Below, piece by piece: positions 1,861 through 36,102 of a DNA stretch of 64,000 nucleotides. Every line of letters starts with the position of its first letter. Position 1 is the stretch's first letter. The DNA comes from Levilactobacillus brevis (lineage in GTDB: Bacteria; Bacillota; Bacilli; Lactobacillales; Lactobacillaceae), in the NCBI GenBank assembly GCA_003666485.1, contig CP032931.1:2480001-2544000 (forward strand), in the 5' to 3' direction. The translations under genes and the position numbers were made by a program. The notes under the pieces were generated by a model. The model was not told the origin of the DNA, ran no database searches, and saw only the letters and a program-made list of their open reading frames with translations.

Positions 1861-2050
1861 CGTAGCCGTGAGTTCGCTAGATATGAGTTCAGCCGTGGGA
1901 GTTTTCTTAGCGGTGGGCTTTACCGGTTAGAAAACTGACAACTTGGAGACGCGGGTCATCGGCTCCAAGTTGAGGGTCGAGACCGTTTTTTGGCTCGACC
2001 CGGCCCCCACCGCGTTCCGACTCATATCTAGCGAACGGTAAGGCGGCCAG
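1861..2050 (+). repeat. Multi-branched intergenic element, copy 1
   Basis: The outer stem pairs TTCGCTAGATATGAGT with ACTCATATCTAGCGAA. Three hairpins lie inside: GTTTTCTTA/GGTTAGAAAAC, CAACTTGGAG/CTCCAAGTTG and GGGTCGAG/CTCGACCC. The loops ACGCGGGT...CGG and ACCG...TTGG recur in the other copies. It lies between the gdpD-like gene and the ddl terminator. Confidence 0.85.
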
Positions 2051-2082
2051 CATCCTTGTGTTGCCCAAACAGATGATTAAAC

Positions 2083-2120
2083 AAAAAACCGGCCGGAACG
2101 TTTCCGCTCCTGACCGGCTT
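2083..2120 (-). terminator. Rho-independent terminator of ddl
   Basis: On the minus strand a GC-rich stem (AGCCGGTC...GGCCGGT with an inner GGAGCG/CGTTCC pairing) is followed by T6. It lies just after the ddl stop codon. Confidence 0.8.
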
Positions 2121-2127
2121 TTGAACC

Positions 2128-3270
2128 TTAATTTTTAGGCTTGTAAGTTGACGCTGCCGAGTGGTCATCCAATGGAATAAAGTCATAGGCCAGTTCGTCT
2201 TGGTACTTGAACTCGTCTAATCCCAGTTGGATCAACCGGTCAATCAGGTCAGCGTAGTTGATGCCCGTTGCCTGCCACAGTTGTGGGTACAGGCTAATGT
2301 TGGTGAACCCTGGCAAGGTGTTGACTTCGCCCACGTAAGGCACATTATCCTTAGAGACCAGATAATCGATGCGGGCCATGCCCTTCAACCCCAGGGCGGC
2401 ATAAGTCTGCAACCCCATTTGGGTAATTTCCTTGGTCAAGTCTTCTGGTAACTCGACTGGCACCTCAAAGGTCACCCCACTGGCATCCACGAACTTGTTG
2501 TTGTAGTCGTAGAACACGTCAGAGTCAGGTACCCGAATCGCACCTAACTTCGACGCAATCGGTTGTTCGTTCCCCAAAATGGAAATTTCGACTTCTTCTG
2601 GGCCGTCGATCGTCTGTTCCACCAGCACCTTGTAATCATACCGGAAGGCGTCTTCAATGCCGTCGTTGTATTCTTCGGCGTTGCCCGCCTTGTGAATACC
2701 GACTGAAGACCCTTGGTTGGCTGGCTTGATGAAGACGTTCGCGCCCAACTTGGCTTGAACAGTGTCATAGTCATACGCATCGCGGTTCTCTGGCGTCAAG
2801 ACCAGATACTTGGTGTTGCGAATGCCGTGAGCCGTCAAGACTTGCTTCGTCATATCCTTATCGAAGGACACGGCCGATGCCAAGACGCCACTCCCCACAT
2901 AAGGCTTTTTCAACAAGCGGAAAAGCCCCTGGATCGTACCGTCTTCACCCAGGTTACCATGAATAATCGGGAAGAAGACATCGATGTCCTTTGCTTGGGA
3001 TAAATTCCAAATGGGTGCCAATGGGTTAGAAGCGTCTACCTTGGTTTGTTCCGCCGCCGCAACAGTCGCTTCATCTTCGCCATCAAAAACCCGGCGTGAA
3101 GCGGCATCACTCAGGACGAAGCCATCGCGCGTCAGTAAGAATAAACTCACTTCGTAGCGAGACTTGTCCATTGCATCGTAAATGTTGTGCGCTGAGCGTT
3201 TAGAAACGTCATGCTCAGAAGAATTTCCACCGAATAATAGACCTACGTGAATCTTCGTTTTCTTTTCCAT
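2128..3270 (-). CDS. ddl: D-alanine--D-alanine/D-lactate ligase
   Basis: ATP-grasp ligase that makes the terminal D-Ala-D-X dipeptide for peptidoglycan in the cytoplasm. Seen motifs, numbered from the upstream ATG, are LLFGGNSSEHDVSKRS near residue 15, IIHGNLGEDGTIQG near 106, NQGSSVGIHK near 189 and the C-terminal VGEVNTLPGFT. The specificity residue in DYNNKFVD is Phe264, where D-Ala-D-Ala ligases have Tyr. Phe at this site is the mark of the D-Ala-D-Lac ligases of vancomycin-resistant Leuconostoc and Lactobacillus. Another ATG lies at 3282, but the AGGATGA ribosome binding site fits better with the ATG at 3270 (380 aa). The gene is monocistronic with its own terminator. Confidence 0.95.
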   Translation of the reverse strand: MEKKTKIHVGLLFGGNSSEHDVSKRSAHNIYDAMDKSRYEVSLFLLTRDGFVLSDAASRRVFDGEDEATVAAAEQTKVDASNPLAPIWNLSQAKDIDVFFPIIHGNLGEDGTIQGLFRLLKKPYVGSGVLASAVSFDKDMTKQVLTAHGIRNTKYLVLTPENRDAYDYDTVQAKLGANVFIKPANQGSSVGIHKAGNAEEYNDGIEDAFRYDYKVLVEQTIDGPEEVEISILGNEQPIASKLGAIRVPDSDVFYDYNNKFVDASGVTFEVPVELPEDLTKEITQMGLQTYAALGLKGMARIDYLVSKDNVPYVGEVNTLPGFTNISLYPQLWQATGINYADLIDRLIQLGLDEFKYQDELAYDFIPLDDHSAASTYKPKN

Positions 3271-3344
3271 GTTGTCACTCATCCTATCGTATATATTTCG
3301 GTTAGCCTTCAGTATACCATTTCTCTAAAAAATTGAGAATAAAA

Positions 3345-4319
3345 TCAGCCTAAAAAATCGATAGTTGAGCTTAAATATCCCTTAAGGGCGGCGGGCAGGT
3401 CCTTGCGTAAACGTAAGGCATCCAGCAACCGCTTACGATTGAAGAAACGGTTCCACCCCGCGATGGTGTCCGGCCGGCGGTTCAACGCCACCTGTTGCCG
3501 CCAATTTTTCAAGATCAACGTCAGGGCGTCCGCGTACAACCCGCTGCGATTCGTAGTCTCTGCTAAGTAGTTGGCAATGCGGTCATTTTCGCCGTAAATC
3601 AGTGGCGTGTTCAACCGCTTTAGACGTTCCATCAGCGCCGTCATCAAGAAGAGCTTGTCAGCCCGCGCCAATTTGTGATTATTGCTCAAAACGGCCAACA
3701 GATCCGCAATCGCGGTAAAGGCGTGTGCCCAGCCCGATTGGTTCACAAAGCCCCGCGTGTCCGTTTCCAGGCACAGGTAGCCCGTGGCTAAAATAACGAT
3801 TCGTTGGAGCTTGTCGACGGCAATGGGTTCAAGCGTCTGGTCCAAGAAATGCAAGACCACGCTCAGCATGGCCACGTGCCCGGCCCGGCCGAAGACGGCA
3901 TTGTTGGCTGGCTCCAAGATGTGGTCAAATAAAGCTTCGGGCCGGGACAATTCATCCAAGATAAAGGTTAATTGCTGTGAATCGAGGGCATCCTGCTGAA
4001 GGGCATCGTAGAACGTAAAATTAATGCCTTGGTAGCGGAGCTGGGCATCGGTCGACGCCAGATGCGCCAGCAACAATTTGATCTTGTCCGTCGTTAACGT
4101 CACCGGTACCTGTTGGTCCAATTGATGGCGGAAATCAGCTAATACGTCTTGGACCCCGTCTTGGTCGTCAGGTAACGTCACGGTCGTACGCCGGTGCCGT
4201 TTGATACCGTCCATGATGTGGCCTAACCGCGGCCCCAAGGACTGGTACACCTCACCCTGTTTGACCTGTTCATTCAGGGCCGTTAAGTCGCTTAACATTA
4301 TTTTGAGCTGTTCATCCAT
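3345..4319 (-). CDS. DUF2785 family protein
   Basis: About 324 residues, mostly helical, with the family-typical segment around RGFVNQSGWAHAFTAIADLL. Members occur widely in Firmicutes and have no established reaction. The start at 4319 (MDEQLKIML) is chosen because ACTGGAGGTTTCTTG precedes it with good spacing; an upstream in-frame start lacks a site. It lies 22 bp downstream of the SPFH gene on the same strand, so the two are probably cotranscribed. No signal peptide or membrane segment is visible. Confidence 0.75.
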   Translation of the reverse strand: MDEQLKIMLSDLTALNEQVKQGEVYQSLGPRLGHIMDGIKRHRRTTVTLPDDQDGVQDVLADFRHQLDQQVPVTLTTDKIKLLLAHLASTDAQLRYQGINFTFYDALQQDALDSQQLTFILDELSRPEALFDHILEPANNAVFGRAGHVAMLSVVLHFLDQTLEPIAVDKLQRIVILATGYLCLETDTRGFVNQSGWAHAFTAIADLLAVLSNNHKLARADKLFLMTALMERLKRLNTPLIYGENDRIANYLAETTNRSGLYADALTLILKNWRQQVALNRRPDTIAGWNRFFNRKRLLDALRLRKDLPAALKGYLSSTIDFLG

Positions 4320-4341
4320 CAAGAAACCTCCAGTGTTTGTC

Positions 4342-5190
4342 TTACTCCGCAATCTTCCCGGTATTGATCACCGGTTGGGAGCCCCGTTCATTAATAATTG
4401 AAACCATCATATTGTTGATTAATTGAATCTTTTGATTGTCAGATAAATTCAAGCTTGTCTCTGCCGATAACCGTTCGATAGCGCCTTCGGTAATGGAGAC
4501 CGCCCCTTCCACGATAATCTTTCGGGCAGAGAGGATGGCTTGTGATTGTTGCCGTTGTAACATGGCCGAAGCAATTTCGGTCGCGTAGGCTAAGTGCGTC
4601 AGCCGTGTCTCAATGATTTCGACCCCCGCCACATTCAACCGTTCCTGCAATTCCTCGGTCAAATGATTCGAGACCTCAGTGGGATTACTCCGCAACGTCA
4701 GCTCTTTGCCATCGCCAAAGTTATCGTAGGCGTATTCCGACGCCACGTGCCGAATGGCCGATTCACTTTGAATCTCCACAAATTGTTCATAGTCTTCGAC
4801 GGCAAATAACGCCTTACTGGTGTCCACCACCTTGAACACGATGACGGCAGCGATTTCCACGGGATTCCCCTGTAAATCGTTGACCTTTAAAATAGCGCTA
4901 TTAAAGTTGCGCACCCGCAAGGACACCGTCGACTTATTGGTCAGCGGCACGGTTAAATACAACCCCGCCTCACGAATCGTCCCGATGTAGCGCCCAAAGA
5001 AAGTCAGTACCTTGGATTGATTGGGACTGATGATCGTCAAACTGCTAGCGGCCAAGACTGCCAACACCACCAGAATGGCACCAATCACGGGCGCTGCGGC
5101 GATGCTCAAGTAGATACCCCCGGCTAAGACCAATAAGACCAATACCAAGCCGAGATAGCCATTAATGTGAAATACATTTTTTTCCTTCAT
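4342..5190 (-). CDS. SPFH/band-7 (stomatin-like) membrane protein
   Basis: About 282 residues. Two adjacent hydrophobic segments at residues 10-60 anchor it in the membrane. The SPFH domain follows (SLTIISPNQSKVLTFFGRYIG, then VRNFNSAILKVNDLQGNPVEIAAVIVFKV), and a helical segment rich in Ala, Glu and Gln (ATEIASAMLQRQQSQAILSARK) suggests oligomerisation. Such proteins scaffold membrane microdomains or protease complexes. GGGAGGAAAGCCGT precedes the ATG at 5190; a more distal in-frame ATG has no such site. The DUF2785 gene follows closely, so a shared transcript is likely. The exact role is unknown. Confidence 0.85.
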   Translation of the reverse strand: MKEKNVFHINGYLGLVLVLLVLAGGIYLSIAAAPVIGAILVVLAVLAASSLTIISPNQSKVLTFFGRYIGTIREAGLYLTVPLTNKSTVSLRVRNFNSAILKVNDLQGNPVEIAAVIVFKVVDTSKALFAVEDYEQFVEIQSESAIRHVASEYAYDNFGDGKELTLRSNPTEVSNHLTEELQERLNVAGVEIIETRLTHLAYATEIASAMLQRQQSQAILSARKIIVEGAVSITEGAIERLSAETSLNLSDNQKIQLINNMMVSIINERGSQPVINTGKIAE

Positions 5191-5303
5191 ACGGCTTTCC
5201 TCCCATTGCTTTGATACCTTCATTATACCCGACTACCCCGGGAAAACCCAAGGAAGCGCAGAAAATGATGGCCTTGCGTGGTATCTGTTATGTTGTCTGT
5301 ACT

Positions 5304-5484
5304 GTCCGCCTTACCGTTACGTGAAACTCTAGGCTGGAACGCTGGGGAAGGACCGGTCCGAGCCTGAGACCCGGTCTCAGCCCTTGCTTTGAGCCGAAAC
5401 CCACGTCTCAAAGACACCAATTTGTCAGCAAAGGACGCTGCCCAATTCCCCGGCTGAGCCTAGATTTCACTTCACTCACGGCTT
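5304..5484 (-). repeat. Multi-branched intergenic element, copy 2
   Basis: This copy is in the minus orientation. The outer arms are GTGAAACTCTAGGCT and AGCCTAGATTTCAC. Inside are CTGAGACC/GGTCTCAG and CTTTGAG/CTCAAAG hairpins. The hairpin nearest the right arm is altered (around TTGTCAGC). Confidence 0.8.
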
Positions 5485-5579
5485 TGATTGCTGAGCAACG
5501 ATCGACACATATTAGACTACTTCGACCATGAACGTTGGCGGTACTGATAGCTGATCGAGTTGTTGCTGACAACCACTAC

Positions 5580-5772
5580 CGTAGCCGAGAGTTCGCTAGA
5601 TATGAGTTCAGCCGTGGGAGTTCCCTTAGCGGCGCGATTTTTGCCGGTTAGGGAACTGGCAATTTGGAGACGCGGGTTATCGGCTCCAAATTGAGGTCTG
5701 AGACCGCACTTTGGCTCGGACCGGCGCCCACCGCGTTCCAACTCATATCTAGCGAACGGTAAGGCGCCCAGC
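5580..5772 (+). repeat. Multi-branched intergenic element, copy 3
   Basis: Outer arms are as in copy 1. Hairpin 1 is GTTCCCTTA/TTAGGGAAC and hairpin 2 is CAATTTGGAG/CTCCAAATTG. Both differ from copy 1 by paired, compensating substitutions. It is oriented opposite to copy 2, about 95 bp away. Confidence 0.85.
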
Positions 5773-5823
5773 CCCAACCACCCTCCACCCAACGCAGGTC
5801 AGTAAAATAGGCCATGGAACGCA

Positions 5824-5853
5824 ACAAGGCCGGGACATATGCCCCGACCTTGT
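5824..5853 (-). terminator. Terminator of the mbl-yidD-rodA-gcvH-like cluster
   Basis: A stem ACAAGGTCGGG/CCCGGCCTTGT follows the stop codon of the lipoyl protein gene on the minus strand. The T-tract is weak (TTGCGTT). Confidence 0.6.
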
Positions 5854-5870
5854 CAGATGACGATAGTTGA

Positions 5871-6173
5871 TTAGTCTTCTTGTACGTCGACAAACCAAGC
5901 AGCGTCAGTATCGCTACCGTTTAAAGCATCGAAATCGCTACCTAAAGCTGGGTTAACCGCCGTGACCTTACCGGAAACGGGGCTAGGAATGTCAGAAACC
6001 GCTTTGTCAGCTTCAACGCTCAATAGGTTTTCACCCTTCTTCACGTCATCGCCAACAGCTGGTAATTTGGCAAACTTGATGGTCCCTAATTCGTCTTGGC
6101 CTTCAGTGGTCAAACCGATCCGTGTCCCATCGTTCACTGCTTTGGTCCAGAAATACTTTACCATTTCACTCAT
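5871..6173 (-). CDS. GcvH-like lipoyl-carrier protein
   Basis: 100 residues with the compact lipoyl/H-protein fold pattern. GENLLSVEADKAVSDIPSP around residues 46-64 places a lysine where GcvH carries lipoate. No gcvT or gcvP gene is visible nearby. In many lactic acid bacteria such stand-alone H proteins are thought to serve in lipoate relay or as ADP-ribosylation targets rather than in glycine cleavage. AAGGAG lies 10 bp before the ATG at 6173. It is 17 bp downstream of rodA on the same strand and ends at a terminator, so it is probably the last gene of that transcript. Function is inferred from family only. Confidence 0.85.
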   Translation of the reverse strand: MSEMVKYFWTKAVNDGTRIGLTTEGQDELGTIKFAKLPAVGDDVKKGENLLSVEADKAVSDIPSPVSGKVTAVNPALGSDFDALNGSDTDAAWFVDVQED

Positions 6174-6189
6174 GCTAAATAATCTCCTT

Positions 6190-7395
6190 CTACTTAAACG
6201 ATTCGTTACGACTAAACATGTAACTCTTATAATGATACCGCATTGACATGATTAAGCCAATACCTATCAGGTTCCCAATTAAAGCGGACCCCCCTTGACT
6301 GACAAACGGCAATGGAATCCCAGTCAATGGTAACAGCCCAATGCTCATCCCAATGTTTTCAAACACGTGGAATAAGATCATCATGATGACCCCGGTCGAA
6401 ATGTAGGCGTAGAACACGTTTTTCGTGTCGAACGTGACCCGAATCATTTGGTAGATCAATAAGAAATACAGGAAAATCAGGACACATCCGCCGATGAAAC
6501 CGAAGTTTTCCCCAATAACGGAGAAAATCATATCGGATTCTCGCACGGGTACGTAGACGTGCGATACGTTGAAGCCGGTCCCGAAGATGCCTCCGGACCC
6601 AATGGCCTTCATACTTTGCCACAACTGATACCCGGTATCGGACGTATCTTGTGAGGGGTGTAACCAAGTGTCGACCCGGGAGAATTGGTAGGCCTGAAAG
6701 CCGACCTTTTCCAAAATCTTCCGCCCGGCATCAGTGGTCACCAGCGCTAACGCGGTCCCCCCAACGACGGCAATGGCACTAAACGCGGGGGCGATGATCT
6801 TCCAGGTGATTCCGGAAACCAAAATGACCCCACCCACGATGGCGAAGAACACCAGCATGGTCCCAAAGTCATTTTGCAACTTCAAGAGTAACGCCACTGG
6901 CAACGTCCACAAGATCAGCTTGCCGATCAACACCCAGTCGGTCCGAACGGTGTGAATCGGATTGGCGTTGTTGTGTTCGGTCACGACCCGCGCCAGCATC
7001 AAAATGAAGGCCGGCTTCATAACTTCTGACGGTTGGAAGGTCAACGAGCCAATCGCAAACCAGCTCCGCGCACCGGTGTTAACGTAGTACGCACGACTGT
7101 AGAAGATCAACACGGCCGCTAACAGGAAGATCCCCAAGCCGTATAGCAACGGGGCCACCTTCCACAGTTGTTCCGAATCAAATTGCATGATGATAACGAT
7201 GGCGACGGTCCCAATGATGTACCATGCCAATTGGGAGACCACGGCCGACGTAATGCTGGTCGCACTACTATCGTGGGTCGCCGCCACGTAGATCGACGCA
7301 AGACCAATCAACGCCAACATGAGGACACAAAAGATGATGCCCCAGTCGATTCGTGATTCCGTCTCGCCTCGCCGTTCTGTCGCATTCTTTGCCAC
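6190..7395 (-). CDS. rodA: Rod-shape SEDS glycosyltransferase RodA
   Basis: 401 residues with about ten membrane segments and SEDS-family motifs: ARSWFAIGSLTFQPSEVMKPAF, ESDMIFSVIGENFGFIGG, and a C-terminal GIPLPFVSQGGSALIGNLIGIGL. SEDS proteins polymerise lipid II glycan strands. The setting with mbl (MreB-like) marks it as the elongation-specific member rather than FtsW. The start codon is GTG at 7395 with AAGGAG 8 bp upstream. Genes for DUF2969, YidD and Mbl precede it on the same strand. Confidence 0.92.
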   Translation of the reverse strand: MAKNATERRGETESRIDWGIIFCVLMLALIGLASIYVAATHDSSATSITSAVVSQLAWYIIGTVAIVIIMQFDSEQLWKVAPLLYGLGIFLLAAVLIFYSRAYYVNTGARSWFAIGSLTFQPSEVMKPAFILMLARVVTEHNNANPIHTVRTDWVLIGKLILWTLPVALLLKLQNDFGTMLVFFAIVGGVILVSGITWKIIAPAFSAIAVVGGTALALVTTDAGRKILEKVGFQAYQFSRVDTWLHPSQDTSDTGYQLWQSMKAIGSGGIFGTGFNVSHVYVPVRESDMIFSVIGENFGFIGGCVLIFLYFLLIYQMIRVTFDTKNVFYAYISTGVIMMILFHVFENIGMSIGLLPLTGIPLPFVSQGGSALIGNLIGIGLIMSMRYHYKSYMFSRNESFK

Positions 7396-7495
7396 AATGA
7401 TTGCTCCTTAATTCAAACTAAGATTTGTCCTAAGCCTAGTATAAAGGCCGAAGTGAAATTCGACGTTTCGCTCCGGCCAACTTTACTAAAATTTA

Positions 7496-7720
7496 TTAAC
7501 CGCGATGCAGGTGGTAGTCCTTCAACAGGAGTTCGACCCCTTCGTCAACGGTCTTGACGCGGTACACATCCCCGTCGTTCAGTTGCGCTTCCAACCGGTC
7601 TTCAACCGGGGTGACCGTCCCAATGGTTTCGTCACCGATCTTCAGCACGGACATGTTGCCGCCGTCTGGGAGCTTTTGCTCGTCAATGGTTACCTGTACA
7701 GATTTTTCTCGTTTGCTCAT
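7496..7720 (-). CDS. DUF2969 family small protein
   Basis: 74 residues, soluble and acidic. It begins MSKREKSVQVTIDEQKL and matches the small DUF2969 proteins that LAB encode between yidD and rodA. The function is not known. The conserved place in the wall-elongation cluster suggests a link to envelope growth, which is inference. AAAGGAGAGTTGGC precedes the ATG. Confidence 0.75.
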   Translation of the reverse strand: MSKREKSVQVTIDEQKLPDGGNMSVLKIGDETIGTVTPVEDRLEAQLNDGDVYRVKTVDEGVELLLKDYHLHRG

Positions 7721-7732
7721 GCCAACTCTCCT

Positions 7733-8026
7733 TTATTTGTTAGATGACTCTTCATCTAAGTTCATCGCCTGGCGATAGGCCTTTTCTGCCGCCACGTTAC
7801 GACGCAAGGTAAAGTGATCCGGAACCGGATCGACCCCACCGTGGACAAATGGCTGACAGCGCAAGATACGGGCAATGCCCATGAGGCCGCCCTTAATCGC
7901 GCCATGCTTGGCCAAGGCCTGCAACATGTAATTGGAACAGGTCGGATAGTACCGGCAAGTGGGCGGAAATAACGGTGAGATCCACCGCTGATAACCGCGC
8001 ACCAGCCAAGTCAACAGTTGCCGCAT
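7733..8026 (-). CDS. yidD: Membrane protein insertion efficiency factor YidD
   Basis: 97 residues with the family signature [43 protein letters not shown] split over residues 17-60; the conserved Cys residues and RC...[11 protein letters not shown] are present. YidD assists YidC-dependent membrane protein insertion at the inner face of the membrane. AAGGGAGGCCTGACG precedes the ATG. It lies between mbl and the DUF2969 gene with short gaps, so cotranscription is likely. Confidence 0.93.
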
Positions 8027-8062
8027 CGTCAGGCCTCCCTTTCAATGAACCGTCTCAAACGC

Positions 8063-9067
8063 TTAGTTATTTTCTTTAGCCGTCTTGGTGTCCATGTGTT
8101 CCAGCAAGACACCGGCCCCTTTGGCCACGTTGTCCAATGGGTCTTCGGAAATGATGACGGGCACGGTCAACCGTTCGGAGAACAGCTTGTCGATGCCATC
8201 GAGCAAGGCGCCCCCACCGGTCAACATGATGCCACGATCAATGATGTCAGCGGCCAATTCTGGCGGTGTCGTTTCCAATACGGCCATGGCAGCGGACACG
8301 ATTTGTTCCACAGAATCATGAATGGCGACTTCCACTTCGGCGGCGTTGATCGTCGTGGTGGTTGGCATCCCACTAACGGAGTCCCGACCCCGAACTTCCA
8401 TGGTCTTTTCTTCGTTCCCAGGTTCTGGGTAGGCGGTCCCAATCTTGATCTTGATTGTTTCAGCAGTCCGCTCCCCAATAATCAGGTTGTGGTTATGCTT
8501 TAAGTAGTTCACGATTTCAGAGTTCATCCGGTCACCGGCCACCCGAATTGAGCGACTAGAAACGATGTCCCCTAAGGACAGAATGGCGATGTCAGAAGTC
8601 CCACCACCCATGTCAATAACCATGTTACCACTAGGCTTGAAGATATCCATGCCGGCACCCAAAGCAGCGACTTTTGGTTCAGCTTCCAAATAAACCTTCG
8701 CGCCACCGGACTTTTCAGCGGCCTGAATGATTGCCTTGCGTTCGATTTCAGTAATGTTCGTTGGTGCACAGATCATAATGTTTGGTTTGGATAAGAAGCC
8801 CTTTACACTTAATTTATTGATGAAATAGGAGAGCATGGCTTCGGTGATATCGAAATCAGAAATGACCCCATCCTTCAACGGACGAATTGCCCGGATATTA
8901 CCAGGAGTCCGACCCACCATCCGGTAGGCTTCAGAGCCCACTGCTAATACCTTGTCAGTCTTCGTGTCGATTGCCACGACTGATGGTTCATTTAATACGA
9001 TTCCTTTGCCGACCACGTAGATTAAAACGTTTGCCGTACCTAGGTCAATGCCAATGTCTTTCGCCAT
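8063..9067 (-). CDS. mbl: MreB-family cytoskeletal protein (Mbl type)
   Basis: 334-residue actin-like ATPase with DIGIDLGTANVLIYV at the N-terminus, EAEPKVAALGAGMDI near 136-150, MVIDMGGGTSDIAIL and LTGGGALLDGIDKL. It forms membrane-associated filaments that guide lateral wall synthesis with RodA. The Mbl rather than MreB label rests on position next to murA and rodA and away from mreCD. AGGAGGACGCATAAGT precedes the ATG. It is probably the first gene of the mbl-yidD-DUF2969-rodA-gcvH-like transcript, though the upstream gap is full of repeats and no clean promoter was picked. Confidence 0.9.
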   Translation of the reverse strand: MAKDIGIDLGTANVLIYVVGKGIVLNEPSVVAIDTKTDKVLAVGSEAYRMVGRTPGNIRAIRPLKDGVISDFDITEAMLSYFINKLSVKGFLSKPNIMICAPTNITEIERKAIIQAAEKSGGAKVYLEAEPKVAALGAGMDIFKPSGNMVIDMGGGTSDIAILSLGDIVSSRSIRVAGDRMNSEIVNYLKHNHNLIIGERTAETIKIKIGTAYPEPGNEEKTMEVRGRDSVSGMPTTTTINAAEVEVAIHDSVEQIVSAAMAVLETTPPELAADIIDRGIMLTGGGALLDGIDKLFSERLTVPVIISEDPLDNVAKGAGVLLEHMDTKTAKENN

Positions 9068-9214
9068 ACTTATGCGTCCTCCTGAATTTTAATGCCAATT
9101 TTCAACATTTCATTATACCATAAACCGCGTGAACTCTAAACGGTTTCTCCACCGCTCCTGTAAAACTTCTCTTTACGTTGCTAAACTGACTTGTCGTGGC
9201 GACACTGATAGGCG

Positions 9215-9371
9215 CTGGTCGCCTTGCCGTTGCGTGAAATTCTAGGCTGGAACGCTGGGGAAGGCCGGCCCGAGCCAAAACCCGGTCTCGGCCCTTGCTT
9301 TGAGCCGAAGAACACGTCTCAAAGTCACCAATTTGCCAGCTGAGCCTAGATTTCACTTCACTCTCGGCTAC
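9215..9371 (-). repeat. Multi-branched intergenic element, copy 4 (one hairpin lost)
   Basis: The outer arms TGAAATTCTAGGCT and AGCCTAGATTTCA are kept, as are hairpins GGCCCGAG/CTCGGCC and CTTTGAG/CTCAAAG. The third hairpin has been reduced to a short run. It lies upstream of mbl. Confidence 0.8.
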
Positions 9372-9488
9372 AACTGGTATGTGTAACCAATCGCTAGTTT
9401 AAGCTCTAACGTCTTCTACATCTTTAGTTGCCCCGATACTGAGCGCTAACCACCATTTTCAAAGAAGTTATCCATGACACATTGATAG

Positions 9489-9677
9489 CTGGCCGCCTGC
9501 CGTTCGCTAGATATGAGTCGGAACGCGGTGGGCGCCGGGTCGAGCCACAGAGCGGTCTCGACCCTCAACTCGGAGCCGACAACCCACGTCTCCAAGTTGC
9601 CAGTTTTCTAACCGGCCAGAACCACCGCTAAGAAAACTCCCACGGCTGAACTCATATCTAGCGAACTCTCGGCTACG
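9489..9677 (-). repeat. Multi-branched intergenic element, copy 5
   Basis: Complete copy in the minus orientation. Outer arms are GTTCGCTAGATATGAGT and ACTCATATCTAGCGAA. Inner hairpins are GGGTCGAG/CTCGACCC, an imperfect AACTCGGAG/CTCCAAGTT pair, and AGTTTTCTAAC/GCTAAGAAAACT. Confidence 0.85.
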
Positions 9678-9725
9678 GTGGTGCATGTCAGCAGTATTTG
9701 GCTTACCTCATCCATTTCATCTGTC

Positions 9726-9905
9726 GGAGCCAGCTAGACGTGTAGCCAGCTGTGTCGATCCAGTTAGCTGCCGTTGTTTGCCAGGTTACTGGATGGGACG
9801 ACTTGAAAGACTGGCGAGCTGTGCCAGGCTTCCAAGCGAGCCGGAAGCCCGCTCCTCGGCTGGAGGCGTTCCCCATAGCAGGCGGAACGTTTAGCTGGCG
9901 TAGGC
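9726..9905 (+). repeat. Second structured repeat family, copy A
   Basis: About 180 bp, matching 29168-29348 at most positions. The outer stem is GCCAGCTA/TAGCTGGC. Inner hairpins are ATCCAGT/ACTGGAT and CTGGC/GCCAG. The outer stem sequence differs from copy B by compensating changes. Reading frames through it are not shared with copy B, so it is treated as non-coding. Confidence 0.75.
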
Positions 9906-9930
9906 GACCACGAATTTCTTGTGGAGATAA

Positions 9931-9957
9931 GAAAAAGGCGGCAATTGCTGCCACCTT
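9931..9957 (-). terminator. Terminator of murA
   Basis: Minus-strand stem GGTGGCAG...TGCCGCC followed by T5 directly after the murA stop codon. Confidence 0.8.
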
Positions 9958-9965
9958 CCAGTGAG

Positions 9966-11273
9966 TTAGTTATTTACGTGTGCGTTCTTCAGTACCACGG
10001 TGTCATCATCAGCCACGGTGACCCGTTTGACTTCGGCACCCAGGGCCGTTAACTTCTTGTGGAAGTCGTAGTAACCCCGATCCAGGTACTTCAGATTAGT
10101 TACTTGGGTGTAACCGTCAGCTACCAAACCTGCCAGCACTAGAGCTGCTGCTGCTCGTAAGTCCGTTGCAGCCACTTCAGCGCCGTTGAAATCAGTTGGA
10201 CCGTGCATAACGACCGTCCGCCCGTTGACCTGGTACTTGGCGTTCATCCGCCGCAGTTCTTCCAGGTGCATGAAACGGTTTTCAAAGACGGTTTCTGTCA
10301 TCGTACTGGTGCCTTCAGCAGCCAGCTGCAAAACCGTCATTTGTGGTTGCATATCCGTTGGGAAACCAGGATATGGCAACGTTTTAACGTCGGTTGCCTG
10401 TAATTTATCTGGGCCAATGACACGAATACCATTAGGCTCGTCAGTCACTTGGGCACCCATTTCTTGTAATTTGGAGATCAATGGCTTGTTGTGTTCCACG
10501 ATACCGTCTTGAATCAAGACATTACCGTGCGTCAACGCAGCGCCGACCATGAAAGTACCAGCTTCGATACGGTCTTGAACCACACTGTGTTCCGTCCCGT
10601 GCATCTCTGACACACCGTCGATCCGCAACGTTTCCGTCCCGGCACCGCGAACGTGGGCGCCCATCTTGTTGAGGATGTTAGCCAAGTCCACGATTTCCGG
10701 TTCACGGGCAACGTTATCGATCACGGTCGTCCCCTTCGCCAGGCAAGCTGCCATCAGGATGTTTTGCGTCGCGCCCACACTTGGGAAATCTAAGTAGATA
10801 TGGGCCCCTTTGAGCTGGTCAGCGAAAGCTTCAATGTACCCGTCGTGTTGTTCGATACGGGCACCCAGTGCTTCCAGGCCCTTTAAGTGTAAATCAATGG
10901 GCCGTGTGCCAATCGCACAGCCACCGGGTAAGGCAACCCGCGCATGGCCTAACCGCGCCAACAGTGGTCCCATGACCACGATGGACGCACGCATCTTAGA
11001 CACGTACTCAAACGGCGCTTCACTAGAAAGTTGTTTAGTCGCGTCAATCGTGACTTCTCGTTTGGCCTCATCAAAATCAACGGACAAATTCAAGAAGCGT
11101 AAGACTTTATTCATCGTATACACATCAGACAAAACCGGAACATTTGCTAAGTGAGTGATGCCCTCTTCGCCCAGAATCGACGCTGCCAGGATTGGCAGGA
11201 CGGCATTTTTGGCCCCTTCAATATGGACCACACCAGTTAAGCGGTTCCCACCATGAACAATAATTTTTTCCAT
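9966..11273 (-). CDS. murA: UDP-N-acetylglucosamine 1-carboxyvinyltransferase
   Basis: 435 residues. It catalyses the first committed step of peptidoglycan synthesis, transferring enolpyruvate from PEP to UDP-GlcNAc in the cytoplasm. The KNA substrate motif is at 22-24, the catalytic Cys is C119 in [11 protein letters not shown], and the C-terminal domain has [11 protein letters not shown]. Cys at this site predicts fosfomycin sensitivity of the enzyme itself. TTGGAGGTATCCC precedes the ATG. It is 27 bp downstream of the DUF1146 gene on the same strand and ends at its own terminator, so the two form a short operon just downstream of the ATPase operon. Confidence 0.95.
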
Positions 11274-11300
11274 GGGATACCTCCAAAGATTTTTATGGGT

Positions 11301-11531: not shown

Positions 11532-11561
11532 TCGCTCAATCCTTTCTAAACATTCTCACTA

Positions 11562-11590
11562 ACTATAGCATAATTTTTCAGCCTTGTCCC
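11562..11590 (-). promoter_or_regulatory. Promoter of DUF1146-murA
   Basis: On the minus strand GGGACA (-35) and TATAGT (-10, with an extended TG) are separated by 17 bp, about 30 bp upstream of the start codon. Confidence 0.6.
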
Positions 11591-11608
11591 CGAGATTCCC
11601 ATAAAATC

Positions 11609-11632: not shown

Positions 11633-12019
11633 CTGATTCACTGTTTAAACCACCCAGTGGATTAGTTAAATCACCGTGATAACTGATAAGCCATTTATTT
11701 AACATGGGCAAAAACAACTGCTCACCCCGCACCACACCAGGCTTACCTGACGCTCACGGCTTGTCGTCATTTACCCCCTAATGCCGCCGGCAGACTATTA
11801 GTGAAGTATCCCAACTAAACCCGAAAATTAATTGATGGCCGTCGCTCGACCAAAAAAGATTGATATTGCGCTAATCCCTTGTCGCTCTAGTCATTTCAAC
11901 GATTATGTTTAAATTTTCGTCAAATTTAAACATGAATGTCCTTATTTTTGACCCAACGCCCAGTGACACAATTCTTTCGGGTAAACTGGAAGTTCAACTC
12001 TGCAATTATAGTTGTATTG
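11633..12019. other. Gap without a recognised gene
   Basis: No convincing coding frame is seen. It contains a perfect AT-rich inverted repeat, GTTTAAATTT with AAATTTAAAC around a 5-base loop, at 11907-11931. Confidence 0.5.
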
Positions 12020-12168
12020 CTGGCTGTCGTACCGTCACGTGAGATTCTGGGCCGGAATCCTAGGGAAGGACTGGTCTGGGTTCGAGCCCGGTCTCGGTCC
12101 TTGCGTTAGCCGAAAAAGACGTCCCAGATTCCCCGGCTAAGCCTAGATTTCATCTCACTATCGGCTAC
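12020..12168 (-). repeat. Multi-branched intergenic element, copy 6 (shortened)
   Basis: The outer arms GTGAGATTCTGGGC and AGCCTAGATTTCATCTCAC remain pairable. A hairpin around GGTTCGAGCCCGGTCTCGG is visible. The two other hairpins are shortened or fused. Confidence 0.7.
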
Positions 12169-12312
12169 CGGACATCAATGTCAGCGCAATCCGGTTGTAA
12201 ACCGTTGGCCCAGCGACACCAATAATTACTGGCGTACCTGCCCTCAGAAAAATCGCTTCTGCCACACGTGCTGACGAATACCCATCGCTAGCCGCCACGG
12301 ACAACCGACCAC

Positions 12313-12504
12313 CGTAGCCGAGAGTCCGCTAGAGATGCGTTCAGCTGTGGGAGTTCCCTTAGCGGTGCGATTTTCAGCGCTTAGGGAACTGACACCTTGG
12401 AGACGCGGGTTGCCGGCCCCAAGGTGAGGTCCAAGACCGCTTTTGGGCTTGGACCGGCGCCCTCAGCGTTCCAACGCATCTCTAGCGGACGGTAAGGCGG
12501 CAGC
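12313..12504 (+). repeat. Multi-branched intergenic element, copy 7
   Basis: The outer arms GTCCGCTAGAGATGCGTT and AACGCATCTCTAGCGGAC differ from copy 1 at several positions, each change matched on the opposite arm. Hairpin 2 is CACCTTGG/CCAAGGTG and hairpin 3 is GGTCCAAG/CTTGGACC, again compensated. Confidence 0.9.
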
Positions 12505-13018: not shown

Positions 13019-13031
13019 TTAGAATCCCTCC

Positions 13032-21613: not shown

Positions 21614-21713
21614 TTCCCCCTGAACTGTAATTGGTCCTATTTTACCAAATTTTTCACCTCAGTGGGACTACTTCGCATTATTTATTATTTTATAAAACGT
21701 ACGGTGGGCCGTG

Positions 21714-21801
21714 CTGGCCGCCTACCGTCCACCAAATATGGGTCGTACCGCTGTGGACGGACGGGGTGAGCCAGGGAACGGTCTCGACGCCTCACGGCTA
21801 C
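21714..21801 (-). repeat. Multi-branched intergenic element, copy 8 (strongly truncated)
   Basis: The left end (CTGGCCGCCTACCGTCCACC) and one hairpin (GGGGTGAG...CTCGACGCC) remain. The sequence then jumps to the CGGCTAC end. The other two hairpins and the right arm are deleted. Confidence 0.7.
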
Positions 21802-25770: not shown

Positions 25771-25913
25771 GTTGCTCCCACCTTTTTGACAGTTTCTATC
25801 TATTATAGCCGATTACGCTGGAAAATTCGACTGTCGCGGCCAATTGGTGATAGATTTTTCTGCGAAACCGTTACCAGTCTGGTAGTGTCCTGATATTGGC
25901 AACCATGGCGGTA

Positions 25914-26094
25914 CTGGTCGCCTTGCCGTTCGCAAAATAGGCATCGGAACGCGGTGGGAAGGACCGGTCTGAGCCAAAGGGCGGTCTCAGCCCTCGCTGG
26001 GAACCGTAGCCCGCGTTTCCCAGACGCCATTTTCTAAGAAGAACACTTAGAAAATCCCACGGCTGAACGCCTATTTTGCTTCACTCTCGGCTAC
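25914..26094 (-). repeat. Multi-branched intergenic element, copy 9
   Basis: Outer arms are GCAAAATAGGC and GCCTATTTTGC, unlike the sequence in other copies but fully paired. Inner hairpins are GGTCTGAG/CTCAGCC, CTGGGAA/TTCCCAG and ATTTTCTAAG/CTTAGAAAAT. Confidence 0.9.
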
Positions 26095-26303
26095 ACTTGT
26101 TTTTATCAACAATATTGTTTTAGTACTTGCCCGCCAACAAATCAGGCAGTAGTCGCGATTGCAGGTGGCTGTCAGCATAATCCGTACATGAGACCTACCA
26201 AGACAATCAACAAGCTTCGGCACACTTGCAACTACTGTTACCTCAGTGGCTATACTAAATGGCAGGCGCAACGGGCTAGCGGCTAGTCGCTGACAACGAC
26301 CTA

Positions 26304-26492
26304 TGTAGCCGAGAGTTCGCCAAATATGGGTTCAGCCGTGGGAGTTACCTTGCCAGTGATTTCTGCTGGTTAGGTAACTGGCGTCTTTGAGACGTGGTCT
26401 TTCGGCTCAAAGTCGAGGCGTCGAGACCGCCCTTTGGCTCGACCCGTCCGCCCACCGCGTTCCGACCCATATTTGGCGGACGGTAGGTGGTA
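26304..26492 (+). repeat. Multi-branched intergenic element, copy 10
   Basis: Outer arms are TTCGCCAAATATGGGTTC and GACCCATATTTGGCGGA. Hairpins are GTTACCTTGCCAG/CTGGTTAGGTAAC, CTTTGAG/CTCAAAG and CGTCGAG/CTCGACC. It faces copy 9 about 210 bp away in the opposite orientation, in the divergent tdk-murT gap. Confidence 0.9.
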
Positions 26493-28799: not shown

Positions 28800-28877
28800 T
28801 ATTACAAGTTGAACGGCAAAAATCGCCTAAAAATATTGCCGTGATAGAACTAGTTATGTCCAGGGGGATAGCTCAAA

Positions 28878-29067
28878 CTGGCCGCCTACCGTCCGCCAAA
28901 TATGGGTCGGAACGCTGTGGGCGGACGTGTCGAGCCATAAGGCGGTCTCGACACCTCGCCTTTGAGCCGATGGACCACGTCTCAAAGACGCCAGTTACCT
29001 AACCAGCAAATAGCGCTGCTAAGGTAACTCCCACGGCTGAACCCATATTTGGCGGACTCTCGGCTAC
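28878..29067 (-). repeat. Multi-branched intergenic element, copy 11
   Basis: Complete copy. Outer arms are GTCCGCCAAATATGGGTC and GAACCCATATTTGGCGGAC. Inner hairpins are GTGTCGAG/CTCGACAC, CTTTGAG/CTCAAAG and AGTTACCTAAC/GCTAAGGTAACT. Confidence 0.9.
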
Positions 29068-29167
29068 ACGGTGATTGCTAATTAACAATGCGTTTAACCC
29101 TTAGTGCCAGCTGATTCTACCATTGGTTTTTAATTAATGCACAGTCACTGACAAGCACCAATCCGCC

Positions 29168-29348
29168 GGAGTCAGCCAGTAGTGCAGCCGGCTGTGTCGA
29201 CCCAGTTAGCTGGCGTTTTTGGCCAGGTTACTGGGTGGGACGACTTGAGAGACTGGCGAATTTTGCCAGGCTTTCAAGCGAACCGGAAGACCGCTTCTCA
29301 GGCTGGAGGTGTTCCCCAGAGCAGGCGGAACTGCTGGCTGACGGAGGC
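29168..29348 (+). repeat. Second structured repeat family, copy B
   Basis: Homologous to 9726-9905. The outer stem is GTCAGCCAG/CTGGCTGAC. Inner hairpins are ACCCAGTTAGCTGGC/GCCAGGTTACTGGGT and CTGGC/GCCAG. Relative to copy A, the outer stem and the ACCCAG/CTGGGT pair show matched changes. Confidence 0.75.
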
Positions 29349-34375: not shown

Positions 34376-34580
34376 GAAATTTGGCCTTCTTTCTTCTAAG
34401 GTTACTCTGTAAAACATCAAAAATGCATATGCGACAATTATACTCGCTTGAATCGTGTTTGCAATCATGTATTACCGCTTAAATTAATCAGCGGTGACAA
34501 AAAATAATGTCCGTAATCATGGTGCTGGACCAGTATCCTGAGTGCAGTAGAACTAGTTGCTTACGGCCACATGGTCCGAA

Positions 34581-34696
34581 CTGGCCGCCTACCGTCCGTC
34601 AAATATGGGTCGGAACGCGGTGGGCGGCCGGGGCGAGCCAAGGGGCGGTCTCGACGCCTCCCACGGCTGAACCATATTTGCCGGACTCTCGGCTAC
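34581..34696 (-). repeat. Multi-branched intergenic element, copy 12 (two hairpins lost)
   Basis: The outer arms GTCCGTCAAATATGGGTC and AACCATATTTGCCGGAC and one hairpin (GGGGCGAG...CTCGACGCC) remain. The segment that would hold the other two hairpins is cleanly missing. Confidence 0.8.
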
Positions 34697-34852
34697 AGAA
34701 GATGCATCACTATCAGCCGGTTTCAGCCTTGGCATTTGTTTCACTAATTTCGGCAATTGCATTGGCAGAGAAACTAATTGACCTTTTCAGCCAACGGGCA
34801 AAGGTTACAAGTAAATAAGGCTCAGCTGACGAGGAGCAAGGCTATTAAATTA

Positions 34853-34988
34853 GTCCACGCCACCATCTGCGACTATCAGAGATTCCGGTAGTTATGGGAA
34901 ACGCCGTCAATCTCCAAACACATTTGGCTTCGACCGGTCCTTCCCACAGCGTCACGGTCCAAGTTTGGCGAACGGTAAGGCGGCCAGC
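34853..34988 (+). repeat. Composite repeat: third-family unit joined to the 3' half of a multi-branched element (copy 13)
   Basis: The first 70 bp (CCACCATCTGCGACTATCAG through CCGTCAATCTCCAAACAC) match 35659-35783. The remainder (from CGACCGGTCC to GGCGGCCAGCAC) is the right half of the multi-branched family and lacks its left partner arm. Confidence 0.65.
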
Positions 34989-35166
34989 ACGGACTAAATC
35001 ACATTCAAAGACTAATTTTGTCCCCGTAAACTCAGACGTCACCATAAATCTAGCTAAGGCTTGCAACCTTCAGCTAGAAGACCAATCGGTGGCAAAACAC
35101 CGCCATGTAAGCGTTTACGGAACGCTTTTTACCATTCATAAAGCTGGTAATGTTGTCAATATTTGT

Positions 35167-35172: not shown

Positions 35173-35196
35173 GGGGACACTGAAGGGAGTAAGAGC

Positions 35197-35526
35197 ATGG
35201 CGAGCAACTCAGATTCAATCTATAACGTCTTAACCTATATTCACCGTCATCAAGATCAGGTTCGCTTTATCCAACAGCGCAATAGCAACGTCATCGCGAT
35301 TGGCGTCCCCGACTCGGTGCCGGTAGCGAATCAGGAACTCTACTTCCCCGTTGGCCACCTGTTGGTCAACCGGATGGATGATGACTTTTTAGCCAAAAAT
35401 GGTGAGCTGTTGAACGACTTCTTCGACCGCACGCGTAGTTCTAAAGAAGACTACCGCGAAGTCTGGATCACCACCAGTTACATCCCCACCGAGCACATGT
35501 ACTTGGTGGAAATTTCTTTTGAATGA
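35197..35526 (+). CDS. Conserved-looking hypothetical protein, 109 aa
   Basis: I do not recognise this family. The ATG at 35197 has GAAGGGAGTAAGAGC upstream. A longer open frame that begins at 34894 runs through repeat sequence and is not credible. The protein is soluble and acidic in its second half, with no signal peptide or membrane segment. Its own extended -10 and terminator make it a single-gene unit. Repeat elements flank it on both sides. Confidence 0.65.
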   Translation: MASNSDSIYNVLTYIHRHQDQVRFIQQRNSNVIAIGVPDSVPVANQELYFPVGHLLVNRMDDDFLAKNGELLNDFFDRTRSSKEDYREVWITTSYIPTEHMYLVEISFE

Positions 35527-35532
35527 TGACTT

Positions 35533-35566
35533 AAAAACGGGCAGCCCAGTAGCGGGTTGCCCGTTT
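35533..35566 (+). terminator. Terminator of the 35197 gene
   Basis: Stem ACGGGCAGCCC/GGGTTGCCCGT, then TTCGTTT. Confidence 0.8.
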
Positions 35567-35658
35567 CGTTTGTCTGCGTTTAGTTTGGTCACCTAAAGGT
35601 TGCAAGTACAAAAACACCTGATAATACGCAACTGACAAGGATCGTGAACATGAAATGA

Positions 35659-35786
35659 GTCCATGCCACCACCTGCGGCTGTCAGAGATTCCGGTAGCTA
35701 TGGGGACCGCCGGCGGCCTAAGGAGCGGTCCGCCGACTCGGTTTGAAGCTTGACGAACCCCGTCAATCTCCAAACACGTCCACGCT
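35659..35786 (+). repeat. Third repeat family, longer copy
   Basis: This copy shares its ends (CCACCACCTGCGGCTGTCAG and CCGTCAATCTCCAAACAC) with 34853-34926. Its inner part holds hairpin-forming stretches (GGCGG/CCGCC and CGGTTT/AACCCCG). AGATTCCGG and CCCCGTCAATCT can pair as an outer stem. Confidence 0.5.
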
Positions 35787-35934
35787 GTAAGCTGAGAAAA
35801 AACGCTCAGCTAACACCGTTGTCACAGCAACCTACACCTCTGACTGCCTCCGGTCACGTCGGTGATTAACCACAAAATTAGCAGAGAAATCGCTGAAACG
35901 GCAACGTTCATCCACACTAGTGGGTAACCTGTCA

Positions 35935-36102
35935 CGTAGCCGTGAGTGAGCTAAATTTGGACTCAGCCGTGGGAGTTTGCAAGTGAACTGCTTGGAAACT
36001 GGCGTCTTCGGCTCGAAGCGAGGTTGAAGACCGCCCTTTGGCGTCGACCGGTCCCTCCCACAGCGTCACGGTCCAAATTTGGCGAACGGCAAGGCGGCCA
36101 GC
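35935..36102 (+). repeat. Multi-branched intergenic element, copy 14 (divergent)
   Basis: The outer arms GAGCTAAATTTGGACTC and GGTCCAAATTTGGC pair well but differ from all other copies. The hairpin GTTTGCAAG...CTTGGAAAC and the hairpin around CTTCGGCTCGAAG are shorter than usual. Confidence 0.75.

What the first reader, a model, noticed from the sequence alone, without database searches (positions are those of the whole stretch)
1861..36102. Family of about 14 multi-branched intergenic elements with compensatory stem changes
Each complete copy is about 190 bp: an outer stem of 15-18 bp enclosing three hairpins, a cloverleaf-like four-way junction. Stems change in matched pairs between copies. 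The outer stem is TTCGCTAGATATGAG in copy 1, TCCGCTAGAGATGCG in copy 7 and GCAAAATAGGC in copy 9, each with its exact partner arm. Hairpin 2 is CAACTTGGAG, CAATTTGGAG, CACCTTGG, CTGGGAA or CTTTGAG, always with its complement. Loop sequences (ACGCGGGT...CGG and ACCG...TTGG) stay the same. That pattern means structure is under selection, as RNA or as single-stranded DNA. They sit only between genes and operons, and only in the first 36 kb. I know no named family with this structure.
Basis: partly seen in the sequence, partly recalled or inferred. Interest (0 to 1): 0.85.

Follow-up and report, generated by a model that had tools for sequence, protein, structure and literature searches.

The report
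Jumping DNA with paired RNA-like arms
The folded repeats are inner parts of short non-autonomous jumping DNA pieces that sit between genes in Levilactobacillus and related bacteria, and unusually each piece carries one or two outward-facing arms whose folded shape has been kept as if they worked as RNA.

Summary
The ~190-nt cloverleaf elements are real, their stems co-vary, and they are not limited to the first 36 kb: the whole genome (a Levilactobacillus) has at least 150.

They are not free-standing RNA genes. [quoted passage not shown] The usual unit is arm(-) - spacer - arm(+), about 600 bp, with 14-bp terminal inverted repeats CTAAAGGTTGCAAG (CTAAAGGTTGAAAG in sister species) and, where both ends survive, mostly 7-9-bp target duplications. 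A 1559-bp autonomous IS4-family element in a sister species has the same ends.

The arms are the surprise. They point outwards (27 of 35 close neighbours "-+", none "+-"). They show significant covariation and a strong G-U over A-C bias, so one defined strand folds single-stranded, most simply as RNA. One-arm and armless units with intact ends exist, so arms seem dispensable for transposition.

R1 matches occur in 11 of 40 Lactobacillaceae genera sampled, own genus included, in no Rfam family, and in no paper I found. Function is inferred, not shown. Verdict: a MITE family, new variant of a known kind.

The parts
1859..2051 (+). A arm, complete (single arm in its gap)
   Evidence: same site filled in L050
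5301..5485 (-). A arm, complete; left arm of a divergent pair
5578..5771 (+). A arm, complete; right arm of the pair with 5301-5485
9215..9373 (-). A arm, short variant
9488..9679 (-). A arm, complete; pairs with B arm 9724-9905
   Evidence: not alignable in L050, where only a B arm was found in this gap
9724..9905 (+). B arm (sister type of A, same architecture)
   Evidence: R1 matches 9719-9910 at 21.3 bits over the full model
12019..12169 (-). A arm, degraded; left arm of a divergent pair
   Evidence: 68% canonical pairs
12311..12501 (+). A arm, complete; right arm of the pair with 12019-12169
21713..21794 (-). A arm fragment (3' part)
25913..26095 (-). A arm, complete; left arm of a divergent pair
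26303..26490 (+). A arm, complete; right arm of the pair with 25913-26095
28877..29068 (-). A arm, complete; pairs with B arm 29165-29348
29165..29348 (+). B arm, complete
34580..34698 (-). A arm fragments (two pieces) of a decayed unit
34815..34906 (-). B-like fragment, 78% identical over 92 nt to 35621-35712
   Evidence: direct repeat D13; below the threshold of the B profile, a weak B- match (L362)
34923..34988 (+). A arm fragment (3' third) of the same decayed unit
35060..35073 (-). terminal inverted repeat CTGAAGGTTGCAAG, right end of the decayed unit
   Evidence: (G000:C1:2515060-2515073)
35593..35606 (+). terminal inverted repeat CTAAAGGTTGCAAG, left end of the unit carrying B 35672 and A 35934
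   Evidence: (G000:C1:2515593-2515606)
35672..35853 (-). B arm, complete
35934..36102 (+). A arm, complete; right arm of the pair with 35672-35853; no TIR with duplication found at its right end
   Evidence: L363

Best explanation
It is a family of non-autonomous DNA transposons (MITEs), usually about 600 bp, moved in trans by an IS4-family transposase that recognises 14-bp ends CTAAAGGTTG(A/C)AAG and duplicates mostly 7-9 bp of target. SHOWN by sequence: the ends, the duplications, a clean filled-versus-empty site, an autonomous 1559-bp element with the same ends in a sister species, the divergent paired arms, strand-specific structure, spread through Lactobacillaceae. INFERRED: mobilisation in trans, and that the cargo, usually two outward-pointing cloverleaf arms (A with A, or A with B), works as RNA. 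Whichever strand is transcribed, by read-through from a neighbouring gene or from inside, the transcript of a two-arm unit carries one arm in sense orientation in its downstream half. I think this arm acts as an RNA-level punctuation or shield (a structured 3' end, or a binding or processing site for a host RNase or RNA-binding protein), so that insertion between genes is tolerated and copies persist. Arms are probably not needed for transposition itself, because one-arm and armless units with intact ends and duplications exist.
For: Ends and duplications: L064 filled vs L060 empty at the mreB-murA gap with near-identical flanks, 15-bp TIR and 8-bp repeat TTACCAAA. Own genome: 28 matches to CTRAAGRTTGYAAG, 0 for the same pattern read backwards; 26 of 28 have an A or B profile match inside within 900 nt; three units with both TIRs and a perfect 8-bp repeat (605, 615, 390 bp), a fourth (749 bp) with 7 of 8, and two weaker candidates (402 and 282 bp). 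Sister species: CTAAAGGTTGAAAG in 23 of 35 genomes, 72 in G035, control 0 in all 35; of 10 TIR pairs in two genomes 6 have a 7-9 bp repeat (one shifted by a base), 1 has 6 of 7, 3 have none. Autonomous element: L325, 1559 bp, perfect TIRs, 8-bp repeat ctgattaa, 489-aa transposase frame, NCBIfam IS4 NF049925 at 469.9 bits (cut-off 250). Arm architecture: deduplicated neighbours within 500 nt in the window and 30 loci are -+ 27, -- 6, ++ 2, +- 0 of 35; 10 of 17 other-genus loci re-searched with R1 also hold a -/+ pair (11 if the 14.4-bit match in L266 is counted). Single-strand folding of one strand: on the tree WC->GU 165 vs WC->AC 48, WC->WC double 180; in the 37 fetched copies closest by BLAST to one copy GU 49 vs AC 5; B arms GU 65 vs AC 13; alifold energy sense vs antisense -59.6/-38.8 (A) and -85.0/-56.2 (B). 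Dispensable arms: one-arm 390-bp unit and armless 224-bp unit L282 with perfect TIRs and 8-bp repeat.
Against: No transcript was seen; RNA is inferred. G-T pairs also form in single-stranded DNA. In the one 3.8-kb region scanned there are 2 promoter-like sites (2.8 expected) and 1 terminator-like site (5.2 expected), which lies inside arm 25913-26095 on its antisense strand; this speaks against intrinsic termination. Units sit in tandem (24), convergent (7) and divergent (4) gaps of 36 examined, one undetermined, so there is no fixed orientation to genes. A first, arm-centred search for TIR plus duplication in 33 own-genome units gave 0 against 8 of 300 random spans; the TIR-first search found them, but in 22 of 28 TIR loci it found no partner end with a duplication. 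Beyond the arms, 136 of 150 A and 21 of 26 B copies have no end motif of 11 or more of 14. No own-genome copy of the autonomous IS was found with the 200-aa query: the only own matches are 14 weak ones (26% identity), and the one tested is an IS1380-family protein. The 142 genome copies were mostly chosen by covariance-model score, which favours well-paired copies.
Confidence: 0.78

Rival explanations
1. The arms have no function of their own: they are ordinary MITE filler whose fold was fixed in a few source copies, and what looks like covariation is a handful of source subfamilies copied or gene-converted around the genome.
For: Arms at shared sites in the window and L050 are not each other's nearest relatives (ranks 105 of 156, 113 of 156, 79 of 156 and 7 of 143), as expected if copies are replaced or converted. 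A few stem variants recur in many copies and in both species. Decayed fragments exist in the window, so copies do rot.
Against: Pair-keeping and GU-biased changes also dominate the terminal branches (GU 110 vs AC 42, double pair-keeping 118 vs breaking 41, means of 20 reconstructions), although the copies were mostly score-chosen. The strand bias (GU over AC) is not produced by copying as such. Across all copies, information in the flanks falls to near zero beyond about 30-35 nt from the arms, though some copy pairs align further.
Confidence: 0.25
2. Single-stranded DNA arms recognised during transposition or replication (REP/REPIN- or IS200/IS605-like).
For: Hairpins in inverted pairs resemble BIMEs/REPINs; most A arms begin with GTAG (about 90% per base in 134 anchored copies), a tag of one REP superfamily (title and start of abstract seen in the listing); the genome has 5 Y1 transposase matches.
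Against: Ends and target duplications go with a DDE/IS4-type element. No A or B arm lies in the four Y1 loci fetched, of 5 found (L259-L262). The G035 arms begin GTAAGCC, so GTAG is not conserved. Armless and one-arm units with duplications exist.
Confidence: 0.08
3. Double-stranded cruciform or supercoil-relief sites (strand-neutral DNA structures).
For: Long imperfect palindromes between genes.
Against: GU:AC imbalance on one strand (466:53 cells in 58 pairs; 209:53 without three GU-majority pairs); a strand-neutral structure predicts equality.
Confidence: 0.03
4. A trans-acting or cis-regulatory structured RNA gene family independent of transposition, as first proposed.
For: Covariation, conserved loops, wide distribution. 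Most arms now lack a recognisable end motif.
Against: 26 of 28 own-genome end motifs have an arm inside; no consistent orientation to genes; 150 or more copies.
Confidence: 0.06

Closest known systems
bcr1-bcr3 repeats of the Bacillus cereus group
   Same: described as MITE-like; bcr1 averages 39 and reaches 130 copies per genome; BCR elements are 100-400 bp; 40-51% of all bcr1-bcr18 copies in two strains lie in transcripts (passages of PMC3446304 and PMC6542083)
   Different: [quoted passage not shown] ours has 14-bp TIRs shared with an IS4-family element, mostly 7-9 bp duplications and divergent cloverleaf arms
MITEs in general, e.g. QMITE2 of Coxiella burnetii
   Same: TIRs, 7-9 bp direct repeats, stable predicted fold of the transcript (passages of PMC10969869)
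   Different: QMITE2 is drawn as TIRs around a 113-145 bp core folded as one transcript; here two separate multi-branched arms lie roughly 50-100 nt inside the TIRs and co-vary
REP / BIME / REPIN
   Same: inverted pairs of structured repeats with variable spacers, intergenic (recalled)
   Different: REPs are 20-40 bp (abstract in the listing) and linked to Y1 transposases (title in the listing); here arms are ~190 nt and ends are shared with a DDE/IS4 element
Mobile insertion cassettes of IS231 (IS4 family)
   Same: IS4-type ends around a cargo without transposase (recalled; MIC appears only in an abbreviation list)
   Different: those carry protein genes (recalled), here non-coding arms

Membership tests
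MITE (non-autonomous DNA transposon) | short, no transposase gene | tested here: met
   units 390-749 bp in the own genome, 401-620 bp in two sister genomes; the interior is mostly the arms
MITE (non-autonomous DNA transposon) | terminal inverted repeats | tested here: met
   most own-genome copies no longer have a recognisable end
MITE (non-autonomous DNA transposon) | target-site duplication and an empty counterpart | tested here: met
   one clean filled/empty site, L064 vs L060; four own-genome units with duplication
MITE (non-autonomous DNA transposon) | autonomous element with the same ends | tested here: met
   L325, 1559 bp, in a sister genome; not found in the own genome
MITE (non-autonomous DNA transposon) | mobilisation by the transposase in trans | not testable with these tools
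   needs a transposition assay
IS4 family (for the autonomous partner) | IS4-type DDE transposase | tested here: met
   NF049925 469.9 bits, cut-off 250; Pfam DDE_Tnp_1 49.2 bits, cut-off 23
REP/BIME/REPIN | associated with a Y1 (RAYT) transposase | tested here: inconclusive
   5 Y1 matches in the genome, no arms in the 4 loci fetched, the fifth not fetched; ends are shared with a DDE element instead
REP/BIME/REPIN | conserved GTAG or CGTC tag at one end | tested here: not met
   GTAG in most own-genome A arms, GTAA in G035, not at the start of the B consensus
Rfam RNA family | match at gathering score | tested here: not met
   whole window, and 15 loci including other genera; only three chance-level matches at E 3.0-3.7 in window 1700-13000
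structured RNA | significant covariation | tested here: met
   (own implementation)
structured RNA | a transcript | not testable with these tools
   no RNA-seq at hand
bcr1-type repeat | TTTAT motif at ends | tested here: not met
   ends are CTAAAGG...CCTTTAG with varied 7-9 bp duplications, none reading TTTAT in the units with clear duplications

The most novel reading that the evidence does not exclude
A functional RNA domain has been captured as MITE cargo and spread to more than a hundred gene boundaries per genome, where each copy acts at the RNA level and is kept by selection in place: a genome-wide layer of mobile, paired, outward-reading RNA punctuation in Lactobacillaceae.
Probability: 0.3. 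Interest if true: 0.8.

Novelty: new variant of a known kind. Interest (0 to 1): 0.52.

Why it matters
MITEs are usually read as decaying filler. Here the cargo evolves like an RNA gene, with compensatory changes, G-U tolerance on one strand only and conserved loops, in at least 150 copies in one genome and with matches in 11 of 40 sampled genera of an industrially important family. That makes the question "do bacterial MITEs carry working RNA domains?" directly testable with ordinary RNA-seq. The units also appear to be uncatalogued repeats (within the searches made here) that can complicate assembly and annotation in Levilactobacillus and its relatives.

Tried and rejected
Rfam at gathering score on the window and 15 loci, and up to E=10 on window 1700-13000: nothing but three chance-level hits in the last. 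Y1 (RAYT-like) partner: 5 Y1 matches in the genome; of the 4 loci fetched none holds an arm. Arm-centred TIR/TSD searches: nothing convincing, and 0 of 33 units against 8 of 300 random spans; superseded by the TIR-first search. First covariation run with an exponential-tail fit: only 2 significant pairs, both in the structure; the empirical null on the filtered rows gave 6. Frames next to TIRs tested as possible transposases: 10 frames, one DDE_Tnp_1 match; the others were six host-type proteins, a TnpB-like frame, an HTH_38/rve frame and one without a match. Arms at shared sites as nearest neighbours: no. Plasmid and phage records: one copy used as query, no match; all 150 listed own-genome matches are on contig C1 and none on the other four contigs, 3.4% of the genome. 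Promoters/terminators: nothing above chance in one 3.8-kb region. Known end motifs around 16 other-genus units: 13 of 14 on one side in three, 12 in one, no more than 10 on either side in the other 12; a generic TIR-plus-duplication search found 0 of 16; no control was run for this. Literature: seven searches of open-licence PMC papers found no description of this family; PMC2267715 lists Lactobacillus johnsonii and names a family Lac-1 (passages only), which I did not compare. R-scape itself was not available. The copies used for statistics are 142 unique full-length arms out of 152 full-length matches in the window and 130 fetched loci; 30 loci came and 99 of the other 120 listed R1 matches were fetched. 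For one search, rows over 93% identical were dropped (142 to 120). The 37 'closest by BLAST' copies were ranked among these fetched copies; the 40 full-length BLAST hits of the whole-genome search (itself capped) all lie in the R1 list.
Full report
OBSERVATION. The repeats are there as described. Self-comparison and iterated profile search find 14 near-complete arms plus fragments between 1.85 and 36.1 kb. Single-copy folding gives the outer stem with three hairpins in the well-preserved A copies, and RNAalifold on 11 window copies keeps it with 27 of 54 pairs showing double, pair-keeping changes. MreB synteny places it in Levilactobacillus; Lev. suantsaiihabitans heads the list at 99% protein identity. 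A covariance model from the 11 copies (R1) finds 150 full-length matches of 131-187 bits spread over the chromosome, a lower bound because only 150 of 1392 candidates were scored.

DISTRIBUTION. R1 matches 33 of 35 Levilactobacillus genomes, own genome included; 76 of 301 Lactobacillaceae genomes in 11 of 40 genera, own included; and 11 of 295 genomes of the order, all of them in this family. The last two used stricter filters that lose weak matches. Named loci with matches outside the genus are Lactiplantibacillus pingfangensis (L129, 64 bits and a divergent partner) and Lp. nangangensis (L111, 25 bits). No match was found in plasmid or phage records with one copy as query, and all 150 listed own matches are on the main chromosome contig.

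COVARIATION. On 142 unique full-length copies (mean pairwise identity 79%, aligned by sequence only) I compared column-pair G statistics with alignments in which the same substitutions were re-dealt along the tree. After dropping rows over 93% identical (120 left), 6 pairs passed E<0.05 under a rate-weighted null, all in the structure; 8 passed under a uniform null, 7 in the structure; 22 of the 60 best scores are structure pairs. An earlier run on all 142 with a fitted tail gave 2, both in the structure. Over 58 pairs the reconstructed changes from a Watson-Crick pair include 180 WC-to-WC double changes, 165 WC-to-GU, 48 WC-to-AC and 49 transversion mismatches.

WHICH STRAND, WHICH MOLECULE. 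If the structure acted as double-stranded DNA, G-T and A-C mismatches would be equally tolerated. They are not: 466 GU against 53 AC cells, 209 against 53 without three GU-majority pairs, and 49 against 5 in the 37 fetched copies closest by BLAST to one copy. The three rows of that set still named after the window are too few to tell (GU 4, AC 9; without the degraded copy 12021-12168 GU 2, AC 1). B arms behave alike: 65 against 13 in 36 copies. Consensus folding is much better for the sense strand than for its complement (A -59.6 vs -38.8; B -85.0 vs -56.2 kcal/mol). So one strand folds single-stranded; RNA is the simplest molecule, single-stranded DNA is not excluded.

ARMS COME IN DIVERGENT PAIRS. 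B is a sister type of A: 41 BLAST matches in the genome, the query itself included, matched by R1 end to end at 21 bits. Among 35 distinct neighbouring arm pairs within 500 nt in the window and 30 loci, 27 are -+, 6 --, 2 ++ and none +-; the same arrangement appears in sister species and in 10 of 17 other-genus loci, 11 with the weak 14.4-bit match of L266. Of 36 own-genome units, 24 lie between tandem genes, 7 between convergent, 4 between divergent, and one could not be placed (genes called by open frame and codon usage), so there is no fixed orientation to host genes.

THE UNIT IS A TRANSPOSON. In the mreB-murA gap, L064 (Lev. tongjiangensis) carries a B-/A+ unit and L060 (Lev. yonginensis) does not, with almost identical flanks. 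The insert begins CTAAAGGTTGAAAGC, ends GCTTTCAACCTTTAG, and is flanked by TTACCAAA on both sides. The 14-mer CTAAAGGTTGAAAG occurs in 23 of 35 genus genomes, with 0 matches to the backwards control in all 35. Ten TIR pairs in G014 and G035 span 401-620 bp; 6 have a 7-9 bp direct repeat (one shifted by one base), 1 has 6 of 7, 3 have none. In the window's own genome that 14-mer is absent and the end reads CTAAAGGTTGCAAG with a few variants: 28 matches, control 0; 26 of 28 have an arm match inside; units at 1,906,560-1,907,164, 2,718,018-2,718,632 and 2,860,028-2,860,417 have both ends and perfect 8-bp repeats, one from 467,092 (749 bp) has 7 of 8, two more loci give weaker candidates, and the rest show no partner end with a duplication. 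Two of these ends lie in the window, at 35,060 and 35,593. Most own arms no longer have a recognisable end; the mean best match to the sister-species end motif beyond A arms is only slightly above control (8.27 vs 8.00, sd of control means 0.07; B 8.88 vs 8.10, sd 0.16). Similar ends flank a few other-genus units (13 of 14 on one side in L265, L269 and L272, 12 in L267), while the other 12 of 16 units examined reach no more than 10 of 14 on either side, without a control.

THE AUTONOMOUS PARTNER. A 1559-bp element in G035 (L325) has the same perfect ends, the duplication ctgattaa and a 489-aa transposase frame that passes NCBIfam's IS4 model NF049925 at 469.9 bits against a cut-off of 250. With a 200-aa query from another genome, 13 of 35 genus genomes have a match at E<=0.001, one of them G000 with 14 weak matches at 26% identity; the one of these tested is an IS1380-family transposase. 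So no source transposase was found in the window's own genome.

ARMS AS CARGO. A 390-bp unit with a single A arm and intact ends and duplication, and a 224-bp unit without recognisable arms in G006 with perfect ends and duplication (L282), indicate that arms are not required in cis for transposition, although loss after insertion is not excluded. What keeps the fold is therefore probably an activity of the arm, most simply in RNA. Because arms point outwards, a transcript of either strand of a two-arm unit carries one sense arm in its downstream half. I infer a role as RNA punctuation or protection; this step is not shown. An intrinsic terminator is unlikely: in the 3.8 kb scanned, with four complete A arms, the only terminator-like site lies inside one arm on its antisense strand.

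AGAINST, AND OPEN. Arms at the four sites shared with L050 are not nearest relatives of their counterparts, so copies are replaced, converted or independently inserted, and part of the covariation may be spread of a few source variants. Terminal branches still favour pair-keeping changes, but most copies were chosen by covariance-model score, and tree reconstruction is unreliable if copies recombine. Copies differ in age: some pairs align 90-280 nt beyond the arm, while most flanks do not align.

KNOWN OR NEW. No Rfam family fits. Seven literature searches gave no description; only open-licence PMC papers were searchable. The nearest described relatives in kind are the bcr1-bcr3 repeats of the Bacillus cereus group (passages) and bacterial MITEs in general (passages). 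I file it as a new variant: a MITE by every sequence criterion tested, unusual for its paired, divergent, covarying arms.

Noticed in passing
window 36100-64000: No arms found here. The stretch holds a phage-type integrase (43518-44651) beside tRNA-Glu and tRNA-Gln, a Mutator-family transposase (61745-62917) and a VapE-like protein (62914-63903), so part of it looks like acquired DNA, which may explain the absence.
   Followed up: partly
L282 1501-1724 (G006): A 224-bp armless miniature element with the same perfect TIRs and an 8-bp duplication TAAGTGAA, so the same ends also carry other cargo.
   Followed up: partly
L265 (G332, a genome of another genus of the family): Arms scoring 148 bits, as high as in some Levilactobacillus species; the other listed matches outside the genus reach at most 76 bits. 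Possible recent horizontal transfer.
   Followed up: no
G000:C1 (14 places listed, e.g. L335): Fourteen copies of a 440-aa transposase frame with equal match scores; the one tested is IS1380 family. An apparently recent IS expansion.
   Followed up: partly
L285, L293, L302, L305 (Levilactobacillus genomes): Another class of element with the same 14-bp end followed by a strong hairpin just inside; L293 has a TnpB-like (Cas12f1-like) frame nearby.
   Followed up: no
window arms, 5' end: Most A arms start with GTAGCC, like the GTAG tag of one REP superfamily; arms of one sister species read GTAAGCC, so probably coincidence.
   Followed up: partly
window sites 1859, 5301, 5578, 12311 versus L050: Arms at shared sites are less alike than many non-allelic copies, suggesting conversion or replacement between copies.
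   Followed up: partly
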